Assembly (NCBI GenBank): GCA_958299035.1
Contig: CATQJL010000305.1
Location: 73,872,792-73,936,791, forward strand
Reading direction: 5' to 3'
Source: Cylicocyclus nassatus
Lineage: Eukaryota > Nematoda > Chromadorea > Rhabditida > Strongylidae
DNA length: 64,000 nucleotides
The position numbers and the translations under genes were made by a program. Position 1 is the first letter of the stretch. Each line of letters starts with the position of its first letter. The notes beneath the pieces were generated by a model, which did not search any database, had not been told where the DNA came from, and saw only the letters and a list, made by a program, of their open reading frames with translations. This document shows positions 1 to 64,000 of the stretch, piece after piece.

Positions 1-61
1 GACTCGAACCCCTGACCCTTAGATTAAAAGTCTAATGCTCTACCAACTGAGCTAACGAGGC
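1..61 (-). tRNA. tRNA-Lys(UUU), partial at window edge
   Basis: Unit 1. The window starts inside the T stem, so tRNA positions 62-73 (T-stem 3' strand end, 3' acceptor strand and discriminator) are outside. The visible part (positions 1-61) is identical to the array consensus, with anticodon TTT. Confidence 0.93.
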
Positions 62-190
62 CTCGATGGCAGAAGCGGTTTATGTAATAAACATGTCGAA
101 ACCATATTGCAGGAATGTCCTCCGGCGCCCTTTAGGTACGATGGCACGATATTCATGAAAAAGCGTATAGTTTGGGCTGCCAAAACTATT

Positions 191-263
191 AGCCCCGTAG
201 GGGACTCGAACCCCTGACCCTTAGATCAAAAGTCTAATGCTCTACCAACTGAGCTAACGAGGG
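191..263 (-). tRNA. tRNA-Lys(UUU) with G37 and C1
   Basis: Two changes against consensus: A37 to G next to the anticodon, and G1 to C, which gives a C1-C72 mismatch at the end of the acceptor stem. Lysine tRNAs reading A-starting codons normally carry t6A at A37, impossible with G37. An identical copy lies at 4631-4703 because the block is duplicated. Function doubtful. Confidence 0.85.
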
Positions 264-762
264 CTCGATGGCAGAAGCGGTTTATGTAATAAACATGTCG
301 AAACCATATTGCAGGAATGTCCTCCGGCGCCCTTTAGGTACGATGGCACGATATTCATGAAAAAGCGTATAGTTTGGGCTGCCAAAACTATTAGCCCCGT
401 AGGGGACTCGAACCCCTGACCCTTAGATTAAAAGTCTAATGCTCTACCAACTGAGCTAACGAGGCCTCGATGGCAGAAGCGGTTCATGTAATAAACATGT
501 CGAAACCATATTGCAGGAATGTCCTCCGGCGCCCTTTAGGTACGATGGCACGATATTCATGAAAAAACGTATAGTTTGGGCTGCCAAAACTATTAGCCCC
601 GTAGGGGACTCGAACCCCTGACCCTTAGATTAAAAGTCTAATGCTCTACCAACTGAGCTAACGAGGCCTCGATGGCAGCAGCGTTTTATGTAATAAACAT
701 GTCGAAACCATATTGCAGGAATGTCCTCCGGCGCCCTTTAGGTACGATGCACGATATTCATG

Positions 763-767
763 AAAAA
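763..767 (-). terminator. Distal T5 Pol III terminator
   Basis: CTTTTTC on the transcribed strand, 29-33 nt after the tRNA, a likely backup terminator. Essentially invariant through the array, and T6 in seven F spacers of the left domain (spacers after the tRNAs starting at 393, 4833, 7254, 12901, 14514, 16329 and 17942). It is the only obvious stop for tRNAs behind an R spacer. Confidence 0.65.
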
Positions 768-771
768 GCGT

Positions 772-794: not shown

Positions 795-806
795 TAGCCC
801 CGTAGG

Positions 807-817: not shown

Positions 818-849
818 CCTGACCCTTAGATTAAAAGTCTAATGCTCTA

Positions 850-861: not shown

Positions 862-868
862 ACGAGGC

Positions 869-1878: not shown

Positions 1879-2006
1879 CTCGATGGCAGAAGCGGTTTAT
1901 GTAATAAACATGTCGAAACCATATTGCAGGAATGTCCTCCGGCGCCCTTTAGGTACGATGCACGATATTCATGAAAAAGCGTATAGTTTGGGCTGCCAAA
2001 ACTATT

Positions 2007-2079
2007 AGCCCCGTAGGGGACTCGAACCCCTGACCCTTAGATTAGAAGTCTAATGCTCTACCAACTGAGCTAACGAGGC
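2007..2079 (-). tRNA. Lys-bodied tRNA with UCU (Arg) anticodon
   Basis: Identical to the consensus tRNA-Lys except T35 to C (plus-strand 2045), making loop CTTCTAA and anticodon TCT, which reads AGA, an arginine codon in the standard code. All stems and both promoter boxes are intact. U35 is a main LysRS determinant and C35 a main ArgRS determinant in the systems studied, so the one change could shift charging to arginine, or yield a mis-decoding tRNA if lysine is still loaded. It directly follows a broken-T-stem copy. Six sister copies exist. Confidence 0.85.
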
Positions 2080-2410
2080 CTCGATGGCAGAAGCGGTTTA
2101 TGTAATAAACATGTCGAAACCATATTGCAGGAATGTCCTCCGGCGCCCTTTAGGTACGATGGCACGATATTCATGAAAAAGCGTATAGTTTGGGCTGCCA
2201 AAACTATTAGCCCCGTAGGGGACTCGAACCCCTGACCCTTAGATTAAAAGTCTAATGCTCTACCAACTGAGCTAACGAGGCCTCGATGGCAGAAGCGGTT
2301 TATGTAATAAACATGTCGAAACCATATTGCAGGAATGTCCTCCGGCGCCCTTTAGGTACGATGGCACGATATTCATGAAAAAGCGTATAGTTTGGGCTGC
2401 CAAAACTATT

Positions 2411-2485
2411 AGCCCCGTAGGGGACTCGAACCCCTGACACCCTTAGATTAAAAGTCTAATGCTCTACCAACTGAGCTAACGAGGC
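2411..2485 (-). tRNA. tRNA-Lys(UUU) with 7-nt variable region
   Basis: Two extra bases in the variable region (plus strand GACACCC for GACCC) lengthen it from 5 to 7 nt and the unit to 204 bp. The stems are intact. This change marks the right end of the block shared with 4441-6870. Confidence 0.8.
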
Positions 2486-2815
2486 CTCGATGGCAGAAGC
2501 GGTTTATGTAATAAACATGTCGAAACCATATTGCAGGAATGTCCTCCGGCGCCCTTTAGGTACGATGGCACGATATTCATGAAAAAGCGTATAGTTTGGG
2601 CTGCCAAAACTATTAGCCCCGTAGGGGACTCGAATTCCTGACCCTTAGATTAAAAGTCTAATGCTCTACCAACTGAGCTAACGAGGCCTCGATGGCAGAA
2701 GCGGTTTATGTAATAAACATGTCGAAACCATATTGCAGGAATGTCCTCCGGCGCCCTTTAGGTACGATGCACGATATTCATGAAAAAGCGTATAGTTTGG
2801 GCTGCCAAAACTATT

Positions 2816-2888
2816 AGCCCCGTAGGGGACTCGAACCCCTGACCCTTAGATTAGAAGTCTAATGCTCTACCAACTGAGCTAACGAGGC
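2816..2888 (-). tRNA. Lys-bodied tRNA with UCU (Arg) anticodon
   Basis: Second copy with C35 (plus-strand 2854). It again follows a broken-T-stem unit (2615) across a 201-bp C spacer, so the pair is a dimer module repeated 0.8 kb after the first. Confidence 0.85.
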
Positions 2889-3622
2889 CTCGATGGCAGA
2901 AGCGGTTTATGTAATAAACATGTCGAAACCATATTGCAGGAATGTCCTCCGGCGCCCTTTAGGTACGATGGCACGATATTCATGAAAAAGCGTATAGTTT
3001 GGGCTGCCAAAACTATTAGCCCCGTAGGGGACTCGAACCCCTGACCCTTAGATTAAAAGTCTAATGCTCTACCAACTGAGCTAACGAGGCCTCGATGGCA
3101 GAAGCGGTTTATGTAATAAACATGTCGAAACCATATTGCAGAAATGTCCTCCGGCGCCCTTTAGGTACGATGGCACGATATTCATGAAAAAGCGTATAGT
3201 TTGGGCTGCCAAAACTATTAGCCCCGTAGGGGACTCGAACCCCTGACCCTTAGATTAAAAGTCTAATGCTCTACCAACTGAGCTAACGAGGCCTCGATGG
3301 CAGAAGCGGTTTATGTAATAAACATGTCGAAACCATATTGCAGGAATGTCCTCCGGCACCCTTTAGGTACGATGGCACGATATTCATGAAAAAGCGTATA
3401 GTTTGGGCTGCCAAAACTATTAGCCCCGTAGGGGACTCGAACCCCTGACCCTTAGATTAAAAGTCTAATGCTCTACCAACTGAGCTAACGAGGCCTCGAT
3501 GGCAGCAGCGTTTTATGTAATAAACATGTCGAAACCATATTGCAGGAATGTCCTCCGGCGCCCTTTAGGTACGATGCACGATATTCATGAAAAAGCGTAT
3601 AGTTTGGGCTGCCAAAACTATT

Positions 3623-3695
3623 AGCCCCTTAGGGGACTCGAATCCCTGACCCTTAGATTAAAAGTCTAATGCTCTACCAACTGAGCTAACGAGGC
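3623..3695 (-). pseudogene. tRNA-Lys copy with A67 and A53
   Basis: Exemplar of the commonest variant (44 copies). C67 to A breaks pair 6-67 in the acceptor stem and G53 to A breaks the conserved 53-61 pair and alters the B box to GATTCGAGTCC. Anticodon TTT intact. Left coordinates of the class: 3623, 4026, 10079, 12095, 13909, 15522, 19353, 19756, 20159, 20562, 20965, 21368, 22174, 22577, 23787, 24190, 24996, 25399, 29434, 30849, 31251, 31856, 33670, 34679, 35082, 36495, 36898, 40730, 42948, 44964, 45367, 46778, 48794, 49601, 49802, 50810, 51011, 52221, 52422, 54439, 54640, 56253, 62096, 63103. Almost always preceded by a B spacer. Reduced function is likely but unproven. Confidence 0.65.
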
Positions 3696-4630
3696 CTCGA
3701 TGGCAGAAGCGGTTTATGTAATAAACATGTCGAAACCATATTGCAGGAATGTCCTCCGGCGCCCTTTAGGTACGATGGCACGATATTCATGAAAAAGCGT
3801 ATAGTTTGGGCTGCCAAAACTATTAGCCCCGTAGGGGACTCGAACCCCTGACCCTTAGATTAAAAGTCTAATGCTCTACCAACTGAGCTAACGAGGCCTC
3901 GATGGCAGCAGCGTTTTATGTAATAAACATGTCGAAACCATATTGCAGGAATGTCCTCCGGCGCCCTTTAGGTACGATGCACGATATTCATGAAAAAGCG
4001 TATAGTTTGGGCTGCCAAAACTATTAGCCCCTTAGGGGACTCGAATCCCTGACCCTTAGATTAAAAGTCTAATGCTCTACCAACTGAGCTAACGAGGCCT
4101 CGATGGCAGAAGCGGTTTATGTAATAAACATGTCGAAACCATATTGCAGGAATGTCCTCCGGCGCCCTTTAGGTACGATGGCACGATATTCATGAAAAAG
4201 CGTATAGTTTGGGCTGCCAAAACTATTAGCCCCGTAGGGGACTCGAACCCCTGACCCTTAGATTAAAAGTCTAATGCTCTACCAACTGAGCTAACGAGGC
4301 CTCGATGGCAGCAGCGTTTTATGTAATAAACATGTCGAAACCATATTGCAGGAATGTCCTCCGGCGCCCTTTAGGTACGATGCACGATATTCATGAAAAA
4401 GCGTATAGTTTGGGCTGCCAAAACTATTAGCCCCGTAGGGGACTCGAACCCCTGACCCTTAGATTAAAAGTCTAATGCTCTACCAACTGAGCTAACGAGG
4501 CCTCGATGGCAGAAGCGGTTTATGTAATAAACATGTCGAAACCATATTGCAGGAATGTCCTCCGGCGCCCTTTAGGTACGATGGCACGATATTCATGAAA
4601 AAGCGTATAGTTTGGGCTGCCAAAACTATT

Positions 4631-4703
4631 AGCCCCGTAGGGGACTCGAACCCCTGACCCTTAGATCAAAAGTCTAATGCTCTACCAACTGAGCTAACGA
4701 GGG
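4631..4703 (-). tRNA. tRNA-Lys(UUU) with G37 and C1
   Basis: Duplicate of the copy at 191-263, at an offset of 4440 bp, with the same G37 and C1 changes and the same flanking spacers. Confidence 0.85.
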
Positions 4704-6446
4704 CTCGATGGCAGAAGCGGTTTATGTAATAAACATGTCGAAACCATATTGCAGGAATGTCCTCCGGCGCCCTTTAGGTACGATGGCACGATATTCATGA
4801 AAAAGCGTATAGTTTGGGCTGCCAAAACTATTAGCCCCGTAGGGGACTCGAACCCCTGACCCTTAGATTAAAAGTCTAATGCTCTACCAACTGAGCTAAC
4901 GAGGCCTCGATGGCAGAAGCGGTTCATGTAATAAACATGTCGAAACCATATTGCAGGAATGTCCTCCGGCGCCCTTTAGGTACGATGGCACGATATTCAT
5001 GAAAAAACGTATAGTTTGGGCTGCCAAAACTATTAGCCCCGTAGGGGACTCGAACCCCTGACCCTTAGATTAAAAGTCTAATGCTCTACCAACTGAGCTA
5101 ACGAGGCCTCGATGGCAGCAGCGTTTTATGTAATAAACATGTCGAAACCATATTGCAGGAATGTCCTCCGGCGCCCTTTAGGTACGATGCACGATATTCA
5201 TGAAAAAGCGTATAGTTTGGGCTGCCAAAACTATTAGCCCCGTAGGGGACTCGAACCCCTGACCCTTAGATTAAAAGTCTAATGCTCTACCAACTGAGCT
5301 AACGAGGCCTCGATGGCAGAAGCGGTTTATGTAATAAACATGTCGAAACCATATTGCAGGAATGTCCTCCGGCGCCCTTTAGGTACGATGGCACGATATT
5401 CATGAAAAAGCGTATAGTTTGGGCTGCCAAAACTATTAGCCCCGTAGGGGACTCGAACCCCTGACCCTTAGATTAAAAGTCTAATGCTCTACCAACTGAG
5501 CTAACGAGGCCTCGATGGCAGAAGCGGTTTATGTAATAAACATGTCGAAACCATATTGCAGGAATGTCCTCCGGCGCCCTTTAGGTACGATGGCACGATA
5601 TTCATGAAAAAGCGTATAGTTTGGGCTGCCAAAACTATTAGCCCCGTAGGGGACTCGAACCCCTGACCCTTAGATTAAAAGTCTAATGCTCTACCAACTG
5701 AGCTAACGAGGCCTCGATGGCAGAAGCGGTTTATGTAATAAACATGTCGAAACCATATTGCAGGAATGTCCTCCGGCACCCTTTAGGTACGATGGCACGA
5801 TATTCATGAAAAAGCGTATAGTTTGGGCTGCCAAAACTATTAGCCCCGTAGGGGACTCGAACCCCTGACCCTTAGATTAAAAGTCTAATGCTCTACCAAC
5901 TGAGCTAACGAGGCCTCGATGGCAGAAGCGGTTTATGTAATAAACATGTCGAAACCATATTGCAGGAATGTCCTCCGGCGCCCTTTAGGTACGATGGCAC
6001 GATATTCATGAAAAAGCGTATAGTTTGGGCTGCCAAAACTATTAGCCCCGTAGGGGACTCGAACCCCTGACCCTTAGATTAAAAGTCTAATGCTCTACCA
6101 ACTGAGCTAACGAGGCCTCGATGGCAGAAGCGGTTTATGTAATAAACATGTCGAAACCATATTGCAGGAATGTCCTCCGGCGCCCTTTAGGTACGATGGC
6201 ACGATATTCATGAAAAAGCGTATAGTTTGGGCTGCCAAAACTATTAGCCCCGTAGGGGACTCGAATTCCTGACCCTTAGATTAAAAGTCTAATGCTCTAC
6301 CAACTGAGCTAACGAGGCCTCGATGGCAGAAGCGGTTTATGTAATAAACATGTCGAAACCATATTGCAGGAATGTCCTCCGGCGCCCTTTAGGTACGATG
6401 CACGATATTCATGAAAAAGCGTATAGTTTGGGCTGCCAAAACTATT

Positions 6447-6519
6447 AGCCCCGTAGGGGACTCGAACCCCTGACCCTTAGATTAGAAGTCTAATGCTCTA
6501 CCAACTGAGCTAACGAGGC
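6447..6519 (-). tRNA. Lys-bodied tRNA with UCU (Arg) anticodon
   Basis: Third copy, C35 at plus-strand 6485; it is the 4440-bp-offset duplicate of the copy at 2007. It follows the broken-T-stem unit at 6246. Confidence 0.85.
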
Positions 6520-7051
6520 CTCGATGGCAGAAGCGGTTTATGTAATAAACATGTCGAAACCATATTGCAGGAATGTCCTCCGGCGCCCTTTAGGTACGAT
6601 GGCACGATATTCATGAAAAAGCGTATAGTTTGGGCTGCCAAAACTATTAGCCCCGTAGGGGACTCGAACCCCTGACCCTTAGATTAAAAGTCTAATGCTC
6701 TACCAACTGAGCTAACGAGGCCTCGATGGCAGAAGCGGTTTATGTAATAAACATGTCGAAACCATATTGCAGGAATGTCCTCCGGCGCCCTTTAGGTACG
6801 ATGGCACGATATTCATGAAAAAGCGTATAGTTTGGGCTGCCAAAACTATTAGCCCCGTAGGGGACTCGAATTCCTGACCCTTAGATTAAAAGTCTAATGC
6901 TCTACCAACTGAGCTAACGAGGCCTCGATGGCAGAAGCGGTTTATGTAATAAACATGTCGAAACCATATTGCAGGAATGTCCTCCGGCGCCCTTTAGGTA
7001 CGATGCACGATATTCATGAAAAAGCGTATAGTTTGGGCTGCCAAAACTATT

Positions 7052-7124
7052 AGCCCCGTAGGGGACTCGAACCCCTGACCCTTAGATTAGAAGTCTAATG
7101 CTCTACCAACTGAGCTAACGAGGC
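7052..7124 (-). tRNA. Lys-bodied tRNA with UCU (Arg) anticodon
   Basis: Fourth copy, C35 at plus-strand 7090, after the broken-T-stem unit at 6851. Here the next unit is one with an F spacer, unlike the copy at 2816, so the block boundary lies just after this module. Confidence 0.85.
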
Positions 7125-8665
7125 CTCGATGGCAGAAGCGGTTTATGTAATAAACATGTCGAAACCATATTGCAGGAATGTCCTCCGGCGCCCTTTAGGT
7201 ACGATGGCACGATATTCATGAAAAAGCGTATAGTTTGGGCTGCCAAAACTATTAGCCCCGTAGGGGACTCGAACCCCTGACCCTTAGATTAAAAGTCTAA
7301 TGCTCTACCAACTGAGCTAACGAGGCCTCGATGGCAGAAGCGGTTCATGTAATAAACATGTCGAAACCATATTGCAGGAATGTCCTCCGGCGCCCTTTAG
7401 GTACGATGGCACGATATTCATGAAAAAACGTATAGTTTGGGCTGCCAAAACTATTAGCCCCGTAGGGGACTCGAACCCCTGACCCTTAGATTAAAAGTCT
7501 AATGCTCTACCAACTGAGCTAACGAGGCCTCGATGGCAGCAGCGTTTTATGTAATAAACATGTCGAAACCATATTGCAGGAATGTCCTCCGGCGCCCTTT
7601 AGGTACGATGCACGATATTCACGAAAAAGCGTATAGTTTGGGCTGCCAAAACTATTAGCCCCGTAGGGGACTCGAACCCCTGACCCTTAGATTAAAAGTC
7701 TAATGCTCTACCAACTGAGCTAACGAGGCCTCGATGGCAGAAGCGGTTTATGTAATAAACATGTCGAAACCATATTGCAGGAATGTCCTCCGGCGCCCTT
7801 TAGGTACGATGGCACGATATTCATGAAAAAGCGTATAGTTTGGGCTGCCAAAACTATTAGCCCCGTAGGGGACTCGAACCCCTGACCCTTAGATTAAAAG
7901 TCTAATGCTCTACCAACTGAGCTAACGAGGCCTCGATGGCAGAAGCGGTTTATGTAATAAACATGTCGAAACCATATTGCAGGAATGTCCTCCGGCGCCC
8001 TTTAGGTACGATGGCACGATATTCATGAAAAAGCGTATAGTTTGGGCTGCCAAAACTATTAGCCCCGTAGGGGACTCGAACCCCTGACCCTTAGATTAAA
8101 AGTCTAATGCTCTACCAACTGAGCTAACGAGGCCTCGATGGCAGAAGCGGTTTATGTAATAAACATGTCGAAACCATATTGCAGGAATGTCCTCCGGCAC
8201 CCTTTAGGTACGATGGCACGATATTCATGAAAAAGCGTATAGTTTGGGCTGCCAAAACTATTAGCCCCGTAGGGGACTCGAACCCCTGACCCTTAGATTA
8301 AAAGTCTAATGCTCTACCAACTGAGCTAACGAGGCCTCGATGGCAGAAGCGGTTTATGTAATAAACATGTCGAAACCATATTGCAGGAATGTCCTCCGGC
8401 GCCCTTTAGGTACGATGGCACGATATTCATGAAAAAGCGTATAGTTTGGGCTGCCAAAACTATTAGCCCCGTAGGGGACTCGAATTCCTGACCCTTAGAT
8501 TAAAAGTCTAATGCTCTACCAACTGAGCTAACGAGGCCTCGATGGCAGAAGCGGTTTATGTAATAAACATGTCGAAACCATATTGCAGGAATGTCCTCCG
8601 GCGCCCTTTAGGTACGATGCACGATATTCATGAAAAAGCGTATAGTTTGGGCTGCCAAAACTATT

Positions 8666-8738
8666 AGCCCCGTAGGGGACTCGAACCCCTGACCCTTAGA
8701 TTAGAAGTCTAATGCTCTACCAACTGAGCTAACGAGGC
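8666..8738 (-). tRNA. Lys-bodied tRNA with UCU (Arg) anticodon
   Basis: Fifth copy, C35 at plus-strand 8704, after the broken-T-stem unit at 8465 and its C spacer. Confidence 0.85.
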
Positions 8739-10883
8739 CTCGATGGCAGAAGCGGTTTATGTAATAAACATGTCGAAACCATATTGCAGGAATGTCCTCC
8801 GGCGCCCTTTAGGTACGATGGCACGATATTCATGAAAAAGCGTATAGTTTGGGCTGCCAAAACTATTAGCCCCGTAGGGGACTCGAACCCCTGACCCTTA
8901 GATTAAAAGTCTAATGCTCTACCAACTGAGCTAACGAGGCCTCGATGGCAGAAGCGGTTTATGTAATAAACATGTCGAAACCATATTGCAGGAATGTCCT
9001 CCGGCGCCCTTTAGGTACGATGGCACGATATTCATGAAAAAGCGTATAGTTTGGGCTGCCAAAACTATTAGCCCCGTAGGGGACTCGAACCCCTGACCCT
9101 TAGATTAAAAGTCTAATGCTCTACCAACTGAGCTAACGAGGCCTCGATGGCAGAAGCGGTTTATGTAATAAACATGTCGAAACCATATTGCAGGAATGTC
9201 CTCCGGCGCCCTTTAGGTACGATGGCACGATATTCATGAAAAAGCGTATAGTTTGGGCTGCCAAAACTATTAGCCCCGTAGGGGACTCGAATTCCTGACC
9301 CTTAGATTAAAAGTCTAATGCTCTACCAACTGAGCTAACGAGGCCTCGATGGCAGAAGCGGTTTATGTAATAAACATGTCGAAACCATATTGCAGGAATG
9401 TCCTCCGGCGCCCTTTAGGTACGATGGCACGATATTCATGAAAAAGCGTATAGTTTGGGCTGCCAAAACTATTAGCCCCGTAGGGGACTCGAACCCCTGA
9501 CCCTTAGATTAAAAGTCTAATGCTCTACCAACTGAGCTAACGAGGCCTCGATGGCAGAAGCGGTTTATGTAATAAACATGTCGAAACCATATTGCAGAAA
9601 TGTCCTCCGGCGCCCTTTAGGTACGATGGCACGATATTCATGAAAAAGCGTATAGTTTGGGCTGCCAAAACTATTAGCCCCGTAGGGGACTCGAACCCCT
9701 GACCCTTAGATTAAAAGTCTAATGCTCTACCAACTGAGCTAACGAGGCCTCGATGGCAGAAGCGGTTTATGTAATAAACATGTCGAAACCATATTGCAGG
9801 AATGTCCTCCGGCACCCTTTAGGTACGATGGCACGATATTCATGAAAAAGCGTATAGTTTGGGCTGCCAAAACTATTAGCCCCGTAGGGGACTCGAACCC
9901 CTGACCCTTAGATTAAAAGTCTAATGCTCTACCAACTGAGCTAACGAGGCCTCGATGGCAGCAGCGTTTTATGTAATAAACATGTCGAAACCATATTGCA
10001 GGAATGTCCTCCGGCGCCCTTTAGGTACGATGCACGATATTCATGAAAAAGCGTATAGTTTGGGCTGCCAAAACTATTAGCCCCTTAGGGGACTCGAATC
10101 CCTGACCCTTAGATTAAAAGTCTAATGCTCTACCAACTGAGCTAACGAGGCCTCGATGGCAGAAGCGGTTTATGTAATAAACATGTCGAAACCATATTGC
10201 AGGAATGTCCTCCGGCGCCCTTTAGGTACGATGCACGATATTCATGAAAAAGCGTATAGTTTGGGCTTCCAAAACTATTAGCCCCGTAGGGGACTCGAAC
10301 CCCTGACCCTTAGATTAAAAGTCTAATGCTCTACCAACTGAGCTAACGAGGCCTCGATGGCAGCAGCGTTTTATGTAATAAACATGTCGAAACCATATTG
10401 CAGGAATGTCCTCCGGCGCCCTTTAGGTACGATGCACGATATTCATGAAAAAGCGTATAGTTTGGGCTGCCAAAACTATTAGCCCCGTAGGGGACTCGAA
10501 CCCCTGACCCTTAGATTAAAAGTCTAATGCTCTACCAACTGAGCTAACGAGGCCTCGATGGCAGAAGCGGTTTATGTAATAAACATGTCGAAACCATATT
10601 GCAGGAATGTCCTCCGGCGCCCTTTAGGTACGATGGCACGATATTCATGAAAAAGCGTATAGTTTGGGCTGCCAAAACTATTAGCCCCGTAGGGGACTCG
10701 AATTCCTGACCCTTAGATTAAAAGTCTAATGCTCTACCAACTGAGCTAACGAGGCCTCGATGGCAGAAGCGGTTTATGTAATAAACATGTCGAAACCATA
10801 TTGCAGGAATGTCCTCCGGCGCCCTTTAGGTACGATGCACGATATTCATGAAAAAGCGTATAGTTTGGGCTGCCAAAACTATT

Positions 10884-10956
10884 AGCCCCGTAGGGGACTC
10901 GAACCCCTGACCCTTAGATTAGAAGTCTAATGCTCTACCAACTGAGCTAACGAGGC
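10884..10956 (-). tRNA. Lys-bodied tRNA with UCU (Arg) anticodon
   Basis: Sixth copy, C35 at plus-strand 10922, after the broken-T-stem unit at 10683. Its own spacer has a private change, CGGTCTATG for CGGTTTATG, in the upstream AT element. Confidence 0.85.
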
Positions 10957-11287
10957 CTCGATGGCAGAAGCGGTCTATGTAATAAACATGTCGAAACCAT
11001 ATTGCAGGAATGTCCTCCGGCGCCCTTTAGGTACGATGGCACGATATTCATGAAAAAGCGTATAGTTTGGGCTGCCAAAACTATTAGCCCCGTAGGGGAC
11101 TCGAACCCCTGACCCTTAGATTAAAAGTCTAATGCTCTACCAACTGAGCTAACGAGGCCTCGATGGCAGAAGCGGTTTATGTAATAAACATGTCGAAACC
11201 ATATTGCAGGAATGTCCTCCGGCGCCCTTTAGGTACGATGGCACGATATTCATGAAAAAGCGTATAGTTTGGGCTGCCAAAACTATT

Positions 11288-11360
11288 AGCCCCGTAGGGG
11301 ACTCGAACCACTGACCCTTAGATTAAAAGTCTAATGCTCTACCAACTGAGCTAACGAGGC
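11288..11360 (-). tRNA. tRNA-Lys(UUU) with T51 mismatch
   Basis: Plus strand AACCACTG for AACCCCTG: G51 to T, giving a T51-C63 mismatch in the T stem. Single occurrence. Confidence 0.8.
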
Positions 11361-12698
11361 CTCGATGGCAGAAGCGGTTTATGTAATAAACATGTCGAAA
11401 CCATATTGCAGGAATGTCCTCCGGCGCCCTTTAGGTACGATGGCACGATATTCATGAAAAAGCGTATAGTTTGGGCTGCCAAAACTATTAGCCCCGTAGG
11501 GGACTCGAATTCCTGACCCTTAGATTAAAAGTCTAATGCTCTACCAACTGAGCTAACGAGGCCTCGATGGCAGAAGCGGTTTATGTAATAAACATGTCGA
11601 AACCATATTGCAGGAATGTCCTCCGGCGCCCTTTAGGTACGATGGCACGATATTCATGAAAAAGCGTATAGTTTGGGCTGCCAAAACTATTAGCCCCGTA
11701 GGGGACTCGAACCCCTGACCCTTAGATTAAAAGTCTAATGCTCTACCAACTGAGCTAACGAGGCCTCGATGGCAGAAGCGGTTTATGTAATAAACATGTC
11801 GAAACCATATTGCAGAAATGTCCTCCGGCGCCCTTTAGGTACGATGGCACGATATTCATGAAAAAGCGTATAGTTTGGGCTGCCAAAACTATTAGCCCCG
11901 TAGGGGACTCGAACCCCTGACCCTTAGATTAAAAGTCTAATGCTCTACCAACTGAGCTAACGAGGCCTCGATGGCAGAAGCGGTTTATGTAATAAACATG
12001 TCGAAACCATATTGCAGGAATGTCCTCCGGCGCCCTTTAGGTACGATGCACGATATTCATGAAAAAGCGTATAGTTTGGGCTGCCAAAACTATTAGCCCC
12101 TTAGGGGACTCGAATCCCTGACCCTTAGATTAAAAGTCTAATGCTCTACCAACTGAGCTAACGAGGCCTCGATGGCAGAAGCGGTTTATGTAATAAACAT
12201 GTCGAAACCATATTGCAGGAATGTCCTCCGGCGCCCTTTAGGTACGATGCACGATATTCATGAAAAAGCGTATAGTTTGGGCTTCCAAAACTATTAGCCC
12301 CGTAGGGGACTCGAACCCCTGACCCTTAGATTAAAAGTCTAATGCTCTACCAACTGAGCTAACGAGGCCTCGATGGCAGCAGCGTTTTATGTAATAAACA
12401 TGTCGAAACCATATTGCAGGAATGTCCTCCGGCGCCCTTTAGGTACGATGCACGATATTCATGAAAAAGCGTATAGTTTGGGCTGCCAAAACTATTAGCC
12501 CCGTAGGGGACTCGAACCCCTGACCCTTAGATTAAAAGTCTAATGCTCTACCAACTGAGCTAACGAGGCCTCGATGGCAGAAGCGGTTTATGTAATAAAC
12601 ATGTCGAAACCATATTGCAGGAATGTCCTCCGGCGCCCTTTAGGTACGATGGCACGATATTCATGAAAAAGCGTATAGTTTGGGCTGCCAAAACTATT

Positions 12699-12771
12699 AG
12701 CCCCGTAGGGGACTCGAACCCCTGACCCTTAGATTAAAAGTCTAATGCTCTACCAACTGAGCTAACGAGGG
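12699..12771 (-). tRNA. tRNA-Lys(UUU) with C1 mismatch
   Basis: G1 to C leaves C1-C72 unpaired; otherwise consensus, A37 intact. The same single change occurs at 13506-13578, 16127-16199 and 17740-17812, in three cases directly followed by an F spacer-bearing unit, so it is a shared haplotype rather than four mutations. Confidence 0.85.
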
Positions 12772-15700
12772 CTCGATGGCAGAAGCGGTTTATGTAATAA
12801 ACATGTCGAAACCATATTGCAGGAATGTCCTCCGGCGCCCTTTAGGTACGATGGCACGATATTCATGAAAAAGCGTATAGTTTGGGCTGCCAAAACTATT
12901 AGCCCCGTAGGGGACTCGAACCCCTGACCCTTAGATTAAAAGTCTAATGCTCTACCAACTGAGCTAACGAGGCCTCGATGGCAGAAGCGGTTCATGTAAT
13001 AAACATGTCGAAACCATATTGCAGGAATGTCCTCCGGCGCCCTTTAGGTACGATGGCACGATATTCATGAAAAAACGTATAGTTTGGGCTGCCAAAACTA
13101 TTAGCCCCGTAGGGGACTCGAACCCCTGACCCTTAGATTAAAAGTCTAATGCTCTACCAACTGAGCTAACGAGGCCTCGATGGCAGCAGCGTTTTATGTA
13201 ATAAACATGTCGAAACCATATTGCAGGAATGTCCTCCGGCGCCCTTTAGGTACGATGCACGATATTCATGAAAAAGCGTATAGTTTGGGCTGCCAAAACT
13301 ATTAGCCCCGTAGGGGACTCGAACCCCTGACCCTTAGATTAAAAGTCTAATGCTCTACCAACTGAGCTAACGAGGCCTCGATGGCAGAAGCGGTTTATGT
13401 AATAAACATGTCGAAACCATATTGCAGGAATGTCCTCCGGCGCCCTTTAGGTACGATGGCACGATATTCATGAAAAAGCGTATAGTTTGGGCTGCCAAAA
13501 CTATTAGCCCCGTAGGGGACTCGAACCCCTGACCCTTAGATTAAAAGTCTAATGCTCTACCAACTGAGCTAACGAGGGCTCGATGGCAGAAGCGGTTTAT
13601 GTAATAAACATGTCGAAACCATATTGCAGGAATGTCCTCCGGCGCCCTTTAGGTACGATGGCACGATATTCATGAAAAAGCGTATAGTTTGGGCTGCCAA
13701 AACTATTAGCCCCGTAGGGGACTCGAACCCCTGACCCTTAGATTAAAAGTCTAATGCTCTACCAACTGAGCTAACGAGGCCTCGATGGCAGCAGCGTTTT
13801 ATGTAATAAACATGTCGAAACCATATTGCAGGAATGTCCTCCGGCGCCCTTTAGGTACGATGCACGATATTCATGAAAAAGCGTATAGTTTGGGCTGCCA
13901 AAACTATTAGCCCCTTAGGGGACTCGAATCCCTGACCCTTAGATTAAAAGTCTAATGCTCTACCAACTGAGCTAACGAGGCCTCGATGGCAGAAGCGGTT
14001 TATGTAATAAACATGTCGAAACCATATTGCAGGAATGTCCTCCGGCGCCCTTTAGGTACGATGGCACGATATTCATGAAAAAGCGTATAGTTTGGGCTGC
14101 CAAAACTATTAGCCCCGTAGGGGACTCGAACCCCTGACCCTTAGATTAAAAGTCTAATGCTCTACCAACTGAGCTAACGAGGCCTCGATGGCAGCAGCGT
14201 TTTATGTAATAAACATGTCGAAACCATATTGCAGGAATGTCCTCCGGCGCCCTTTAGGTACGATGCACGATATTCATGAAAAAGCGTATAGTTTGGGCTG
14301 CCAAAACTATTAGCCCCGTAGGGGACTCGAACCCCTGACCCTTAGATTAAAAGTCTAATGCTCTACCAACTGAGCTAACGAGGCCTCGATGGCAGAAGCG
14401 GTTTATGTAATAAACATGTCGAAACCATATTGCAGGAATGTCCTCCGGCGCCCTTTAGGTACGATGGCACGATATTCATGAAAAAGCGTATAGTTTGGGC
14501 TGCCAAAACTATTAGCCCCGTAGGGGACTCGAACCCCTGACCCTTAGATTAAAAGTCTAATGCTCTACCAACTGAGCTAACGAGGCCTCGATGGCAGAAG
14601 CGGTTCATGTAATAAACATGTCGAAACCATATTGCAGGAATGTCCTCCGGCGCCCTTTAGGTACGATGGCACGATATTCATGAAAAAACGTATAGTTTGG
14701 GCTGCCAAAACTATTAGCCCCGTAGGGGACTCGAACCCCTGACCCTTAGATTAAAAGTCTAATGCTCTACCAACTGAGCTAACGAGGCCTCGATGGCAGC
14801 AGCGTTTTATGTAATAAACATGTCGAAACCATATTGCAGGAATGTCCTCCGGCGCCCTTTAGGTACGATGCACGATATTCATGAAAAAGCGTATAGTTTG
14901 GGCTGCCAAAACTATTAGCCCCGTAGGGGACTCGAACCCCTGACCCTTAGATTAAAAGTCTAATGCTCTACCAACTGAGCTAACGAGGCCTCGATGGCAG
15001 AAGCGGTTTATGTAATAAACATGTCGAAACCATATTGCAGGAATGTCCTCCGGCGCCCTTTAGGTACGATGGCACGATATTCATGAAAAAGCGTATAGTT
15101 TGGGCTGCCAAAACTATTAGCCCCGTAGGGGACTCGAACCCCTGACCCTTAGATTAAAAGTCTAATGCTCTACCAACTGAGCTAACGAGGCCTCGATGGC
15201 AGAAGCGGTTTATGTAATAAACATGTCGAAACCATATTGCAGGAATGTCCTCCGGCGCCCTTTAGGTACGATGGCACGATATTCATGAAAAAGCGTATAG
15301 TTTGGGCTGCCAAAACTATTAGCCCCGTAGGGGACTCGAACCCCTGACCCTTAGATTAAAAGTCTAATGCTCTACCAACTGAGCTAACGAGGCCTCGATG
15401 GCAGCAGCGTTTTATGTAATAAACATGTCGAAACCATATTGCAGGAATGTCCTCCGGCGCCCTTTAGGTACGATGCACGATATTCATGAAAAAGCGTATA
15501 GTTTGGGCTGCCAAAACTATTAGCCCCTTAGGGGACTCGAATCCCTGACCCTTAGATTAAAAGTCTAATGCTCTACCAACTGAGCTAACGAGGCCTCGAT
15601 GGCAGAAGCGGTTTATGTAATAAACATGTCGAAACCATATTGCAGGAATGTCCTCCGGCGCCCTTTAGGTACGATGGCACGATATTCATGAAAAAGCGTA

Positions 15701-18700
15701 TAGTTTGGGCTGCCAAAACTATTAGCCCCGTAGGGGACTCGAACCCCTGACCCTTAGATTAAAAGTCTAATGCTCTACCAACTGAGCTAACGAGGCCTCG
15801 ATGGCAGCAGCGTTTTATGTAATAAACATGTCGAAACCATATTGCAGGAATGTCCTCCGGCGCCCTTTAGGTACGATGCACGATATTCATGAAAAAGCGT
15901 ATAGTTTGGGCTGCCAAAACTATTAGCCCCGTAGGGGACTCGAACCCCTGACCCTTAGATTAAAAGTCTAATGCTCTACCAACTGAGCTAACGAGGCCTC
16001 GATGGCAGAAGCGGTTTATGTAATAAACATGTCGAAACCATATTGCAGGAATGTCCTCCGGCGCCCTTTAGGTACGATGGCACGATATTCATGAAAAAGC
16101 GTATAGTTTGGGCTGCCAAAACTATTAGCCCCGTAGGGGACTCGAACCCCTGACCCTTAGATTAAAAGTCTAATGCTCTACCAACTGAGCTAACGAGGGC
16201 TCGATGGCAGAAGCGGTTTATGTAATAAACATGTCGAAACCATATTGCAGGAATGTCCTCCGGCGCCCTTTAGGTACGATGGCACGATATTCATGAAAAA
16301 GCGTATAGTTTGGGCTGCCAAAACTATTAGCCCCGTAGGGGACTCGAACCCCTGACCCTTAGATTAAAAGTCTAATGCTCTACCAACTGAGCTAACGAGG
16401 CCTCGATGGCAGAAGCGGTTCATGTAATAAACATGTCGAAACCATATTGCAGGAATGTCCTCCGGCGCCCTTTAGGTACGATGGCACGATATTCATGAAA
16501 AAACGTATAGTTTGGGCTGCCAAAACTATTAGCCCCGTAGGGGACTCGAACCCCTGACCCTTAGATTAAAAGTCTAATGCTCTACCAACTGAGCTAACGA
16601 GGCCTCGATGGCAGCAGCGTTTTATGTAATAAACATGTCGAAACCATATTGCAGAAATGTCCTCCGGCGCCCTTTAGGTACGATGCACGATATTCATGAA
16701 AAAGCGTATAGTTTGGGCTGCCAAAACTATTAGCCCCGTAGGGGACTCGAACCCCTGACCCTTAGATTAAAAGTCTAATGCTCTACCAACTGAGCTAACG
16801 AGGCCTCGATGGCAGAAGCGGTTTATGTAATAAACATGTCGAAACCATATTGCAGGAATGTCCTCCGGCGCCCTTTAGGTACGATGGCACGATATTCATG
16901 AAAAAGCGTATAGTTTGGGCTGCCAAAACTATTAGCCCCGTAGGGGACTCGAACCCCTGACCCTTAGATTAAAAGTCTAATGCTCTACCAACTGAGCTAA
17001 CGAGGCCTCGATGGCAGAAGCGGTTTATGTAATAAACATGTCGAAACCATATTGCAGGAATGTCCTCCGGCGCCCTTTAGGTACGATGGCACGATATTCA
17101 TGAAAAAGCGTATAGTTTGGGCTGCCAAAACTATTAGCCCCGTAGGGGACTCGAATTCCTGACCCTTAGATTAAAAGTCTAATGCTCTACCAACTGAGCT
17201 AACGAGGCCTCGATGGCAGAAGCGGTTTATGTAATAAACATGTCGAAACCATATTGCAGGAATGTCCTCCGGCGCCCTTTAGGTACGATGCACGATATTC
17301 ATGAAAAAGCGTATAGTTTGGGCTGCCAAAACTATTAGCCCCGTAGGGGACTCGAACCCCTGACCCTTAGATTAAAAGTCTAATGCTCTACCAACTGAGC
17401 TAACGAGGCCTCGATGGCAGCAGCGTTTTATGTAATAAACATGTCGAAACCATATTGCAGGAATGTCCTCCGGCGCCCTTTAGGTACGATGCACGATATT
17501 CATGAAAAAGCGTATAGTTTGGGCTGCCAAAACTATTAGCCCCGTAGGGGACTCGAACCCCTGACCCTTAGATTAAAAGTCTAATGCTCTACCAACTGAG
17601 CTAACGAGGCCTCGATGGCAGAAGCGGTTTATGTAATAAACATGTCGAAACCATATTGCAGGAATGTCCTCCGGCGCCCTTTAGGTACGATGGCACGATA
17701 TTCATGAAAAAGCGTATAGTTTGGGCCGCCAAAACTATTAGCCCCGTAGGGGACTCGAACCCCTGACCCTTAGATTAAAAGTCTAATGCTCTACCAACTG
17801 AGCTAACGAGGGCTCGATGGCAGAAGCGGTTTATGTAATAAACATGTCGAAACCATATTGCAGGAATGTCCTCCGGCGCCCTTTAGGTACGATGGCACGA
17901 TATTCATGAAAAAGCGTATAGTTTGGGCTGCCAAAACTATTAGCCCCGTAGGGGACTCGAACCCCTGACCCTTAGATTAAAAGTCTAATGCTCTACCAAC
18001 TGAGCTAACGAGGCCTCGATGGCAGAAGCGGTTCATGTAATAAACATGTCGAAACCATATTGCAGGAATGTCCTCCGGCGCCCTTTAGGTACGATGGCAC
18101 GATATTCATGAAAAAACGTATAGTTTGGGCTGCCAAAACTATTAGCCCCGTAGGGGACTCGAACCCCTGACCCTTAGATTAAAAGTCTAATGCTCTACCA
18201 ACTGAGCTAACGAGGCCTCGATGGCAGCAGCGTTTTATGTAATAAACATGTCGAAACCATATTGCAGGAATGTCCTCCGGCGCCCTTTAGGTACGATGCA
18301 CGATATTCATGAAAAAGCGTATAGTTTGGGCTGCCAAAACTATTAGCCCCGTAGGGGACTCGAACCCCTGACCCTTAGATTAAAAGTCTAATGCTCTACC
18401 AACTGAGCTAACGAGGCCTCGATGGCAGAAGCGGTTTATGTAATAAACATGTCGAAACCATATTGCAGGAATGTCCTACGGCGCCCTTTAGGTACGATGG
18501 CACGATATTCATGAAAAAGCGTATAGTTTGGGCTGCCAAAACTATTAGCCCCGTAGGGGACTCGAACCCCTGACCCTTAGATTAAAAGTCTAATGCTCTA
18601 CCAACTGAGCTAACGAGGCCTCGATGGCAGAAGCGGTTTATGTAATAAACATGTCGAAACCATATTGCAGGAATGTCCTCCGGCGCCCTTTAGGTACGAT

Positions 18701-18949
18701 GGCACGATATTCATGAAAAAGCGTATAGTTTGGGCTGCCAAAACTATTAGCCCCGTAGGGGACTCGAATTCCTGACCCTTAGATTAAAAGTCTAATGCTC
18801 TACCAACTGAGCTAACGAGGCCTCGATGGCAGAAGCGGTTTATGTAATAAACATGTCGAAACCATATTGCAGGAATGTCCTCCGGCGCCCTTTAGGTACG
18901 ATGCACGATATTCATGAAAAAGCGTATAGTTTGGGCTGCCAAAACTATT

Positions 18950-19022
18950 AGCCCCGTAGGGGACTCGAACCCCTGACCCTTAGATTAGAAGTCTAATGCT
19001 CTACCAACTGAGCTAACGAGGC
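18950..19022 (-). tRNA. Lys-bodied tRNA with UCU (Arg) anticodon
   Basis: Seventh and last copy, C35 at plus-strand 18988, 8 kb from the others, after the broken-T-stem unit at 18749. The comparable unit at 17337, which also follows a broken copy with a C spacer (17136), has the normal TTT anticodon. Confidence 0.85.
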
Positions 19023-59349: not shown

Positions 59350-60887
59350 CTCGATGGCAGCAGCGTATGTAATAAACATGTCGAAACCATATTGCAGGAA
59401 TGTCCTCCGGCGCCCTTTAGGTACGATGCACGATATTCATGAAAAAGCGTATAGTTTGGGCTGCCAAAACTATTAGCCCCGTAGGGGACTCGAACCCCTG
59501 ACCCTTAGATTAAAAGTCTAATGCTCTACCAACTGAGCTAACGAGGCCTCGATGGCAGAAGCGGTTTATGTAATAAACATGTCGAAACCATATTGCAGGA
59601 ATGTCCTCCGGCGCCCTTTAAGTACGATGGCACGATATTCATGAAAAAGCGTATAGTTTGGGCTGCCAAAACTATTAGCCCCGTAGGGGACTCGAACCCC
59701 TGACCCTTAGATTAAAAGTCTAATGCTCTACCAACTGAGCTAACGAGGCCTCGATGGCAGAAGCGGTTCATGTAATAAACATGTCGAAACCATATTGCAG
59801 GAATGTCCTCCGGCGCCCTTTAGGTACGATGGCACGATATTCATGAAAAAGCGTATAGTTTGGGCTGCCAGAACTATTAGCCCCGTAGGGGACTCGAACC
59901 CCTGACCCTTAGATTAAAAGTCTAATGCTCTACCAACTGAGCTAACGAGGCCTCGATGGCAGCAGCGTTTTATGTAATAAACATGTCGAAACCATATTGC
60001 AGGAATGTCCTCCGGCGCCCTTTAAGTACGATGGCACGATATTCATGAAAAAGCGTATAGTTTGGGCTGCCAGAACTATTAGCCCCGTAGGGGACTCGAA
60101 CCCCTGACCCTTAGATTAAAAGTCTAATGCTCTACCAACTGAGCTAACGAGGCCTCGATGGCAGCAGCGTTTTATGTAATAAACATGTCGAAACCATATT
60201 GCGGGAATGTCCTCCGGCGCCCTTTAGGTACGATGCACGATATTCATGAAAAAGCGTATAGTTTGGGCTGCCAAAACTATTAGCCCCGTAGGGGACTCGA
60301 ACCCCTGACCCTTAGATTAAAAGTCTAATGCTCTACCAACTGAGCTAACGAGGCCTCGATGGCAGAAGCGGTTTATGTAATAAACATGTCGAAACCATAT
60401 TGCAGGAATGTCCTCCGGCGCCCTTTAAGTACGATGGCACGATATTCATGAAAAAGCGTATAGTTTGGGCTGCCAAAACTATTAGCCCCGTAGGGGACTC
60501 GAACCCCTGACCCTTAGATTAAAAGTCTAATGCTCTACCAACTGAGCTAACGAGGCCTCGATGGCGGAAGCGGTTTATGTAATAAACATGTCGAAACCAT
60601 ATTGCAGGAATGTCCTCCGGCGCCCTTTAGGTACGATGGCACGATATTCATGAAAAAGCGTATAGTTTGGGCTGCCAAAACTATTAGCCCCGTAGGGGAC
60701 TCGAACCCCTGACCCTTAGATTAAAAGTCTAATGCTCTACCAACTGAGCTAACGAGGCCTCGATGGCAGAAGCGGTTTATGTAATAAACATGTCGAAACC
60801 ATATTGCAGGAATGTCCTCCGGCGCCCTTTAGGTACGATGGCACGATATTCATGAAAAAGCGTATAGTTTGGGCTGCCAGAACTATT

Positions 60888-60959
60888 GGCCCCGTAGGGG
60901 ACTCGAACCCCTGACCCTTAGATTAAAAGTCTATGCTCTACCAACTGAGCTAACGAGGC
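60888..60959 (-). pseudogene. tRNA-Lys copy, C73 and 1-nt deletion
   Basis: Same lesion as 58069, with an intact B spacer, so the 3-bp deletion at 59278 happened after the tRNA change had spread. Confidence 0.7.
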
Positions 60960-63707
60960 CTCGATGGCAGCAGCGTTTTATGTAATAAACATGTCGAAAC
61001 CATATTGCAGGAATGTCCTCCGGCGCCCTTTAGGTACGATGCACGATATTCATGAAAAAGCGTATAGTTTGGGCTGCCAAAACTATTAGCCCCGTAGGGG
61101 ACTCGAACCCCTGACCCTTAGATTAAAAGTCTAATGCTCTACCAACTGAGCTAACGAGGCCTCGATGGCAGAAGCGGTTTATGTAATAAACATGTCGAAA
61201 CCATATTGCAGGAATGTCCTCCGGCGCCCTTTAAGTACGATGGCACGATATTCATGAAAAAGCGTATAGTTTGGGCTGCCAAAACTATTAGCCCCGTAGG
61301 GGACTCGAACCCCTGACCCTTAGATTAAAAGTCTAATGCTCTACCAACTGAGCTAACGAGGCCTCGATGGCAGAAGCGGTTCATGTAATAAACATGTCGA
61401 AACCATATTGCAGGAATGTCCTCCGGCGCCCTTTAGGTACGATGGCACGATATTCATGAAAAAGCGTATAGTTTGGGCTGCCAGAACTATTAGCCCCGTA
61501 GGGGACTCGAACCCCTGACCCTTAGATTAAAAGTCTAATGCTCTACCAACTGAGCTAACGAGGCCTCGATGGCAGCAGCGTTTTATGTAATAAACATGTC
61601 GAAACCATATTGCAGGAATGTCCTCCGGCGCCCTTTAGGTACGATGCACGATATTCATGAAAAAGCGTATAGTTTGGGCTGCCAAAACTATTAGCCCCGT
61701 AGGGGACTCGAACCCCTGACCCTTAGATTAAAAGTCTAATGCTCTACCAACTGAGCTAACGAGGCCTCGATGGCAGAAGCGGTTTATGTAATAAACATGT
61801 CGAAACCATATTGCAGGAATGTCCTCCGGCGCCCTTTAAGTACGATGGCACGATATTCATGAAAAAGCGTATAGTTTGGGCTGCCAAAACTATTAGCCCC
61901 GTAGGGGACTCGAACCCCTGACCCTTAGATTAAAAGTCTAATGCTCTACCAACTGAGCTAACGAGGCCTCGATGGCAGCAGCGTTTTATGTAATAAACAT
62001 GTCGAAACCATATTGCAGGAATGTCCTCCGGCGCCATTTAGGTACTATGCACGATATTCATGAAAAAGCGTATAGTTTGGGCTGCCAAAACTATTAGCCC
62101 CTTAGGGGACTCGAATCCCTGACCCTTAGATTAAAAGTCTAATGCTCTACCAACTGAGCTAACGAGGCCTCGATGGCGGAAGCGGTTTATGTAATAAACA
62201 TGTCGAAACCATATTGCAGGAATGTCCTCCGGCGCCCTTTAGGTACGATGGCACGATATTCATGAAAAAGCGTATAGTTTGGGCTGCCAAAACTATTAGC
62301 CCCGTAGGGGACTCGAACCCCTGACCCTTAGATTAAAAGTCTAATGCTCTACCAACTGAGCTAACGAGGCCTCGATGGCAGAAGCGGTTTATGTAATAAA
62401 CATGTCGAAACCATATTGCAGGAATGTCCTCCGGCGCCCTTTAGGTACGATGCACGATATTCATGAAAAAGCGTATAGTTTGGGCTGCCAGAACTATTAG
62501 CCCCGTAGGGGACTCGAACCCCTGACCCTTAGATTAAAAGTCTAATGCTCTACCAACTGAGCTAACGAGGCCTCGATGGCAGCAGCGTTTTATGTAATAA
62601 ACATGTCGAAACCATATTGCAGGAATGTCCTCCGGCGCCCTTTAGGTACGATGCACGATATTCATGAAAAAGCGTATAGTTTGGGCTGCCAAAACTATTA
62701 GCCCCGTAGGGGACTCGAACCCCTGACCCTTAGATTAAAAGTCTAATGCTCTACCAACTGAGCTAACGAGGCCTCGATGGCAGAAGCGGTTTATGTAATA
62801 AACATGTCGAAACCATATTGCAGGAATGTCCTCCGGCGCCCTTTAAGTACGATGGCACGATATTCATGAAAAAGCGTATAGTTTGGGCTGCCAAAACTAT
62901 TAGCCCCGTAGGGGACTCGAACCCCTGACCCTTAGATTAAAAGTCTAATGCTCTACCAACTGAGCTAACGAGGCCTCGATGGCAGCAGCGTTTTATGTAA
63001 TAAACATGTCGAAACCATATTGCAGGAATGTCCTCCGGCGCCCTTTAGGTACTATGCACGATATTCATGAAAAAGCGTATAGTTTGGGCTGCCAAAACTA
63101 TTAGCCCATTAGGGGACTCGAATCCCTGACCCTTAGATTAAAAGTCTAATGCTCTACCAACTGAGCTAACGAGGCCTCGATGGCGGAAGCGGTTTATGTA
63201 ATAAACATGTCGAAACCATATTGCAGGAATGTCCTCCGGCGCCCTTTAGGTACGATGGCACGATATTCATGAAAAAGCGTATAGTTTGGGCTGCCAAAAC
63301 TATTAGCCCCGTAGGGGACTCGAACCCCTGACCCTTAGATTAAAAGTCTAATGCTCTACCAACTGAGCTAACGAGGCCTCGATGGCAGAAGCGGTTTATG
63401 TAATAAACATGTCGAAACCATATTGCAGGAATGTCCTCCGGCGCCCTTTAGGTACGATGGCACGATATTCATGAAAAAGCGTATAGTTTGGGCTGCCAGA
63501 ACTATTAGCCCCGTAGGGGACTCGAACCCCTGACCCTTAGATTAAAAGTCTAATGCTCTACCAACTGAGCTAACGAGGCCTCGATGGCAGCAGCGTTTTA
63601 TGTAATAAACATGTCGAAACCATATTGCAGGAATGTCCTCCGGCGCCCTTTAGGTACGATGCACGATATTCATGAAAAAGCGTATAGTTTGGGCTGCCAA
63701 AACTATT

Positions 63708-63780
63708 AGCCCCGTAGGGGACTCGGACCCCTGACCCTTAGATTAAAAGTCTAATGCTCTACCAACTGAGCTAACGAGGC
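63708..63780 (-). pseudogene. tRNA-Lys copy with C55
   Basis: Plus strand ACTCGGACC for ACTCGAACC: T55 to C. This removes the site of the near-universal pseudouridine 55 and its pairing with G18, and changes an invariant B-box base. Single occurrence. Confidence 0.6.
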
Positions 63781-64000
63781 CTCGATGGCAGAAGCGGTTT
63801 ATGTAATAAACATGTCGAAACCATATTGCAGGAATGTCCTCCGGCGCCCTTTAAGTACGATGGCACGATATTCATGAAAAAGCGTATAGTTTGGGCTGCC
63901 AGAACTATTAGCCCCGTAGGGGACTCGAACCCCTGACCCTTAGATTAAAAGTCTAATGCTCTACCAACTGAGCTAACGAGGCCTCGATGGCAGAAGCGGT

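What the first reader, a model, noticed from the sequence alone, without database searches (positions are those of the whole stretch)
1..64000. At least 318 tandem tRNA-Lys(UUU) genes in 64 kb
Sequence shows one tRNA per 201-202 bp, all on one strand, with no interruption. Tandem tRNA arrays are known in Entamoeba and on a smaller scale in Arabidopsis, Xenopus and zebrafish, but a single-isoacceptor array of more than 300 copies that runs off both window ends is extreme. Possible roles (inference): bulk lysine tRNA supply, a Pol III/TFIIIC-bound boundary or chromosome-organising domain, or a satellite that grew from a tRNA gene.
Basis: partly seen in the sequence, partly recalled or inferred. 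Interest (0 to 1): 0.9.

Follow-up and report, generated by a model that had tools for sequence, protein, structure and literature searches.

The report
Thousand-copy tRNA-Lys satellite in a nematode
One chromosome of a parasitic roundworm carries about a thousand nearly identical head-to-tail copies of a lysine transfer-RNA gene, many of them damaged, while a handful of ordinary copies lie elsewhere in the genome, so the array looks like a gene that turned into satellite DNA.

Summary
The window lies inside an array of about 1,000 units of 201/202 bp (C305:73,766,510-73,968,584, 202 kb), all on one strand. The window itself holds 310 Lys(UUU) and 7 Arg(UCU) calls. A reverse transcriptase and a nuclear COX1 piece point to a strongylid nematode, the latter to horse small strongyles.

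The consensus unit is a complete-looking Pol III gene. Of 518 units read, 339 carry the consensus tRNA and 153 a damaged one. Distinct mutations are as dense in the tRNA as in the spacer, although intact tRNAs are commoner than intact spacer stretches of equal length. Five dispersed ordinary Lys(UUU) genes share an exact core; the four read in full are identical and differ from the array consensus at two bases. A solitary array-type gene lies 111 kb away.

Best reading: a tRNA-gene-derived satellite grown by unequal crossing-over, its copies mostly redundant. Comparable arrays are published in Nippostrongylus (~150 tRNA-Trp) and Phytophthora (271 tRNA-Cys). A new, very large member of a known kind.

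The parts
1..64000 (-). Tandem array of 201/202-bp units, each with one tRNA-Lys(UUU)-type gene; 317 full units plus partial ends. Part of a ~202-kb array, C305:73,766,510-73,968,584 of the assembly; the window is 73,872,792-73,936,791
393..465 (-). Example gene body with the consensus tRNA, 73 nt, canonical positions 1-73, U73 discriminator, no CCA
   Evidence: Rfam RF00005 73.7 bits; ARAGORN; in the predicted fold acceptor, D and T arms are standard, the anticodon arm is shifted in register
447..458 (-). Pol III A box TAGCTCAGTTGG (tRNA positions 8-19) in the example unit; intact in 505 of 518 units read
   Evidence: sequence; box consensus recalled
404..414 (-). Pol III B box GGTTCGAGTCC (tRNA positions 52-62) in the example unit; intact in 417 of 518 units read
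   Evidence: sequence; box consensus recalled
384..387 (-). TTTT terminator 5 nt after the discriminator base in the example unit; a T4 run lies within about 20 nt in 434 of 518 units and within about 42 nt in 518 of 518
   Evidence: sequence
264..392 (-). 129-bp spacer of the example unit, holding the terminator and a short imperfect inverted repeat over it
2006..2080 (-). Example of an anticodon variant: T35C makes UCU (called tRNA-Arg); 7 such copies in the window

Best explanation
It is a tRNA-gene-derived satellite in a strongylid nematode. Shown: about 1,000 head-to-tail units at one locus, the consensus unit being a complete-looking Pol III gene, with unit types interspersed and partly block-duplicated; five ordinary Lys(UUU) genes elsewhere; a solitary array-type gene 111 kb from the array. 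Inferred: a variant Lys(UUU) gene (A26/G44), of which the solitary gene is a surviving relative, was duplicated in tandem. Unequal crossing-over and/or gene conversion then enlarged and homogenised it, carrying along broken copies because most are redundant. Whether the intact majority is transcribed is unknown; most copies have the signals for it, so a fraction probably adds to the lysine tRNA pool while most of the array is passive or silenced.
For: Extent and single locus. Mean identity of units 98.2% over 474 consecutive units; exact block duplications of up to 11 units at spacings of 14 and 22 units, against 3-4 units in 20 shuffles of unit order. Damage: 153 of 518 copies read break a stem pair, an invariant base, the anticodon or the length; the commonest haplotype of this kind, G53A+C67A, stands in 61 copies. 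Distinct variants: 43 in the 73-bp tRNA against 66 in the 129-bp spacer (binomial P=0.49); 21 of 38 distinct tRNA substitutions are damaging, against 23.5 expected at random (P=0.21). Five dispersed genes with 0 mismatches over a 35-base core; in the 4 of 5 read in full, the 73-nt tRNA is identical and differs from the array consensus only at 26 and 44. Solitary gene C305:73,655,448-73,655,520, + strand: 0 of 73 differences from the array consensus, while its upstream flank matches the unit at 67 of 81 aligned bases, gaps aside.
Against: The tRNA is intact in 339 of 518 units (65%), whereas 73-bp stretches of the spacer are intact in only 36-54%. High-frequency variants thus avoid the gene somewhat, which could mean weak selection, or chance with few independent haplotypes. 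All 518 units keep a T4 run within about 42 nt and 505 keep the A box. No transcription or chromatin data. About half of the array (some 480 of ~1,000 units) was not read base by base. No related species was available, so age and conservation are unknown.
Confidence: 0.74

Rival explanations
1. Dosage: the array is kept large because the worm needs much lysine tRNA, or needs this A26/G44 variant at some stage.
For: The majority copy has intact promoter boxes and terminator and a mostly standard predicted fold; tRNA intact in 65% of units, above every 73-bp spacer window; the solitary array-type gene has 73 of 73 bases of the array consensus while its flank diverged.
Against: Five ordinary Lys(UUU) genes exist; 153 of 518 copies are damaged and damaging mutations are not rarer than expected. 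In Phytophthora infestans the most expanded Pro and Ser families serve infrequently used codons (PMC9584435, section 9 read).
Confidence: 0.12
2. Chromatin role: a dense row of TFIIIC/Pol III sites acting as a boundary or as a nuclear-organising domain.
For: About 1,000 gene units in 202 kb, same orientation, regular 201/202-bp spacing. A human tRNA tandem repeat is proposed as a boundary element (PMC4041453, abstract seen).
Against: G53A, inside the B box, stands in 95 of 518 copies. I saw no positive mark of a boundary in the flanks, but the look was slight: no Rfam match in 14 of the 15 array-free flank pieces, and 2 reverse transcriptase pieces among 10 of 105 long open frames scanned against Pfam.
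Confidence: 0.08
3. Assembly artefact: a short array inflated, or haplotypes stacked, by the assembler.
For: Repeats of this size are hard to assemble; no reads could be checked. A flank piece 66-76 kb left of the array holds 500 N, and the assembly contains foreign DNA.
Against: 119 distinct unit sequences among 518 in an order that is not simply periodic; no N in the window or in array pieces L017-L021; non-array sequence follows at both ends, with a decayed edge on the right.
Confidence: 0.06

Closest known systems
Nippostrongylus brasiliensis very long complex tandem repeats (VeCTRs) with tRNA genes (PMC5765664, passages seen)
   Same: Also a strongylid nematode; single-isoacceptor tandem arrays; the longest of five has close to 150 copies of a ~200-bp repeat with tRNA-Trp, another 90 copies of tRNA-Ser; the spacers were known only from that species.
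   Different: Here tRNA-Lys(UUU), about 1,000 copies at one place with both ends assembled, many damaged copies, and a two-base variant of the dispersed genes.
Phytophthora infestans tRNA arrays (PMC9584435, passages and section 9 read)
   Same: Arrays of one tRNA gene on one chromosome, for example 271 tRNA-Cys copies with a 513-nt unit; growth by unequal crossing-over proposed.
   Different: There single-chromosome monomeric arrays are described as nearly identical, with the few variants tending to be grouped, often near an edge; here damaged haplotypes are spread along the part read, and ordinary genes lie elsewhere.
Entamoeba tRNA gene arrays (PMC2652664, passages and section 29 read)
   Same: Tandem tRNA units of unknown function; redundancy suggested.
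   Different: Almost all tRNA genes are arrayed there, units hold up to 5 genes, with short tandem repeats in two species, and no clear pseudogene copies were seen.
Human 1q23.3 tRNA tandem repeat (PMC4041453, abstract seen)
   Same: Tandem repeat with tRNA genes and unstable copy number.
   Different: 7.3-kb units that bind CTCF, 9-43 copies; tRNA genes are under 6% of the unit.

Membership tests
Tandem tRNA gene array | Head-to-tail units, each with a recognisable tRNA gene | tested here: met
Tandem tRNA gene array | Intact internal Pol III promoter and terminator in most units | tested here: met
   A box 505, B box 417, T4 within about 20 nt 434 of 518 units read; consensus motifs recalled
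Tandem tRNA gene array | Transcribed and charged tRNA | not testable with these tools
   no RNA data
Satellite DNA (tRNA-derived) | Long, homogenised tandem array with signs of unequal exchange | tested here: met
   202 kb, 98.2% mean identity and block duplications of up to 11 units in 474 units
Satellite DNA (tRNA-derived) | No purifying selection on the gene inside the unit | tested here: inconclusive
   Distinct mutations not depleted, but the tRNA is intact more often than spacer stretches
Satellite DNA (tRNA-derived) | Heterochromatic or silenced | not testable with these tools
   no chromatin data
tRNA-derived SINE | Copies dispersed over the genome by retrotransposition | tested here: not met
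   999 spacer-pattern matches, 0 forward and 999 reverse; those listed (the first ones only) all lie in this array, whose span is about 1,002 unit lengths. Strongly diverged copies would be missed.
Entamoeba-type arrays | Arrays hold nearly all genes of the isoacceptor as their only form | tested here: not met
   five dispersed ordinary Lys(UUU) genes

The most novel reading that the evidence does not exclude
The array is an active, dedicated source of a structurally distinct lysine tRNA (A26/G44 in place of G26/C44 at the 26:44 tertiary contact), or of its fragments, used in bulk at one life stage. The dispersed genes would serve ordinary translation.
Probability: 0.1. Interest if true: 0.75.

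Novelty: new member of a known kind. Interest (0 to 1): 0.45.

Why it matters
At about 1,000 copies in one place this is larger than the single-isoacceptor arrays in the papers whose passages I saw (271 and ~150 copies; paper searches). The anatomy, with ordinary genes elsewhere, a solitary relative nearby and damaged haplotypes spread through the part read, makes it a clean case for asking when a multicopy gene turns into a satellite. It also warns that tRNA gene counts cannot be read as tRNA supply.

Tried and rejected
Considered and rejected. Bacterial or phage origin: no CCA, TTTT after the gene, an 83.5-Mb contig, nematode-like neighbours; exact spacer pieces were absent from prokaryote and viral contigs and an exact tRNA piece from viral contigs. 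SINE family: the spacer pattern points to one array. Rodent worm: the only near-complete COX1 found in the assembly, on contig C178, is murine (99% to a Murinae entry), which speaks against a horse parasite; but the COX1 piece on C305, the contig that holds the array, is 98% identical to horse strongyles, so I take C178 for a contaminant. The two Heligmosomoides species of mice have assemblies of 649.2 and 656.6 Mb (PMC10682056, passages), not 514.7. I recall, and no call confirms, a published Cylicocyclus nassatus assembly of 514.7 Mb; the species name is only a likely label. A preprint on that species appears in a reference list.

Led nowhere. 18S rRNA, a genome-wide tRNA family search and a Lys(CUU) pattern did not complete, so whether other tRNA families are arrayed here is unknown. 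Rfam on 14 flank pieces gave no match.
Full report
What is there. ARAGORN reports 317 tRNA genes in the window, all on the minus strand: 310 with anticodon UUU and 7 with UCU. Rfam agrees for the first 3 kb, including a gene cut off at base 1. Splitting at the A box gives 318 anchors and 317 full units: 196 of 202 bp, 117 of 201 bp and one each of 198, 203, 204 and 207 bp. The unit is a 73-nt tRNA body followed by a 129-bp spacer. The 201-bp form mainly reflects one deleted base at unit position 120 (169 of 518 units).

Extent. The window is C305:73,872,792-73,936,791 of a 514.7-Mb assembly in 369 contigs; C305 is 83.5 Mb long. Reading outwards, the array begins at 73,766,510 within a perfect unit and ends at about 73,968,584 in a decayed fragment, a span of 202,075 bp, about 1,002 unit lengths. 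A 29-bp spacer pattern with up to 2 mismatches has 999 matches in the whole assembly, 0 forward and 999 reverse; the places listed, the first ones only, all lie in the array. I read the window, the array to its right end, the left 3.5 kb and two 3-kb samples of the rest: 518 full units of about 1,000. Both 3-kb samples were covered completely by units.

Whose genome. An open frame for reverse transcriptase in the left flank has 958 matches, 120 of them listed. The named ones among the first 12 are Necator, Haemonchus, Angiostrongylus and Ancylostoma at 69-79% identity; an unnamed one has 94% over 72% of the query. A nuclear copy of COX1 on C305 is 98% identical over 94% of the query to Cylicodontophorus and Cylicostephanus, small strongyles of horses (recalled). 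Against this, the only near-complete COX1 found in the assembly is murine, on a separate contig; I take it for a contaminant. That Cylicocyclus nassatus has a published 514.7-Mb assembly is my recollection; no call confirms it.

Gene anatomy. The consensus tRNA pairs in all 21 stem positions tested and has A box, B box and TTTT (motif consensus recalled). In the predicted minimum-energy fold the acceptor, D and T arms are standard and the anticodon arm slips. Of 518 units, 505 keep the A box, 417 the B box, 434 a T4 run within about 20 nt and 518 one within about 42 nt. The discriminator base is U, in the array consensus as in the four dispersed genes read in full; 6 of 518 units have T73C.

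Selection. Of 518 copies, 339 have the consensus tRNA, 153 are damaged (stem pair, invariant base, indel or anticodon) and 26 vary harmlessly by these criteria (list of invariant bases recalled). The main damaged types are G53A+C67A (61 copies exactly so) and G52A+G53A (18). Distinct variants number 43 in the tRNA and 66 in the spacer, close to their share of length (P=0.49), and 21 of 38 distinct tRNA substitutions are damaging, against 23.5 expected for random ones (P=0.21). So new mutations do not seem to be filtered. Against this, weighted by copy number the tRNA is cleaner: intact in 65% of units, while 73-bp spacer windows are intact in 36-54%. As few haplotypes carry most of the weight, I call this inconclusive rather than neutral.

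How it grows. Among 474 consecutive units the mean identity is 98.2%. Next neighbours are no more alike than other units (4.03 differences at lag 1 against 3.54 over all pairs), but blocks of up to 11 units recur exactly, at spacings of 14 and 22 units; shuffling unit order gives at most 4 (20 shuffles). This fits exchange of multi-unit blocks; the mechanism is inferred.

The rest of the Lys(UUU) genes. A 35-place tRNA pattern with anticodon UUU was split by position 49. With a base other than A it has 4 matches: one array unit, one in a prokaryotic-type run of 13 tRNA genes and two in identical prokaryote- or phage-like pieces. With A it has 5 forward and 748 reverse matches; 395 of 518 sampled array units match, which predicts about 763 for the array. 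The 5 forward matches are accounted for: 3 dispersed genes and the solitary gene on C305 and one on C316. The core of the dispersed type occurs 5 times exactly (C1:36.73 Mb; C305:16.17, 25.10 and 71.37 Mb; C316:16.03 Mb) and twice with one mismatch at position 33. The four read in full (not the C316 one) have identical tRNAs in flanks that look unrelated by eye, and differ from the array consensus only at positions 26 and 44. One more gene, C305:73,655,448-73,655,520 on the plus strand, is identical to the array consensus in 73 of 73 bases; its upstream flank matches the unit at 67 of 81 aligned bases, gaps aside, and 17 of 18 bases match downstream. It lies 111 kb left of the array and is probably a relative of the founder. 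These counts rest on patterns, so genes with unusual cores would be missed.

Interpretation. The simplest account is a variant lysine tRNA gene that became a satellite, with ordinary genes elsewhere to carry the load. Supply and chromatin roles remain possible and need RNA and chromatin data.

What is known. Passages of PMC5765664 describe, in another strongylid, close to 150 copies of a ~200-bp tRNA-Trp unit and 90 of a tRNA-Ser unit. PMC9584435 (passages and section 9) describes 271 tRNA-Cys copies in a 513-nt unit and growth by unequal crossing-over. PMC2652664 (passages and section 29) covers Entamoeba, PMC2888827 (passages) surveys clusters, and PMC4041453 (abstract) a human tRNA repeat. 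I found no paper on a lysine array of this size in my ten searches; most of their results I saw as listings only, and the library holds open-licence papers only. Hence 'new member of a known kind', of unusual size and with an unusually legible history.

Noticed in passing
G000:C178:2762-4102 and 19061-20400 (L031-L033): The assembly contains a contig with murine mitochondrial COX1, present twice (one copy 99% to a Murinae entry), although the worm appears to be a horse strongyle; probably contamination.
   Followed up: partly
L035 (C62), L037 and L038 (C338): Other contigs carry prokaryotic or phage-like tRNA genes: a run of 13 on C62, and two identical 3-kb pieces 91.5 kb apart on C338; probably foreign DNA in the assembly.
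   Followed up: partly
L034 (C305:56,755,408-56,755,758): A nuclear copy of part of the worm's mitochondrial COX1, 98% identical to cyathostomin COX1, next to a run of N.
   Followed up: yes
tRNA position 73, array consensus and L039-L043: The array consensus, the four dispersed Lys(UUU) genes read and the solitary gene have U as discriminator base; eukaryotic tRNA-Lys usually has G there (recalled).
   Followed up: no
C1:8,945,107 and C305:54,175,527: Two dispersed Lys-like cores differ at position 33, the universally conserved U (T33G and T33C); possibly pseudogenes. Only the 35-base core was seen.
   Followed up: no
window 2006-19023, e.g. 2006-2080: Seven copies, all in the first 19 kb of the window, read UCU (Arg) on a lysine tRNA body; if transcribed and charged with lysine they would misread arginine codons.
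   Followed up: partly
window 361-392 (unit positions 74-105): The TTTT terminator sits in an imperfect inverted repeat; 84 of 518 units read have T81C, which breaks the first T run, with a second T run about 20 nt further on.
   Followed up: partly
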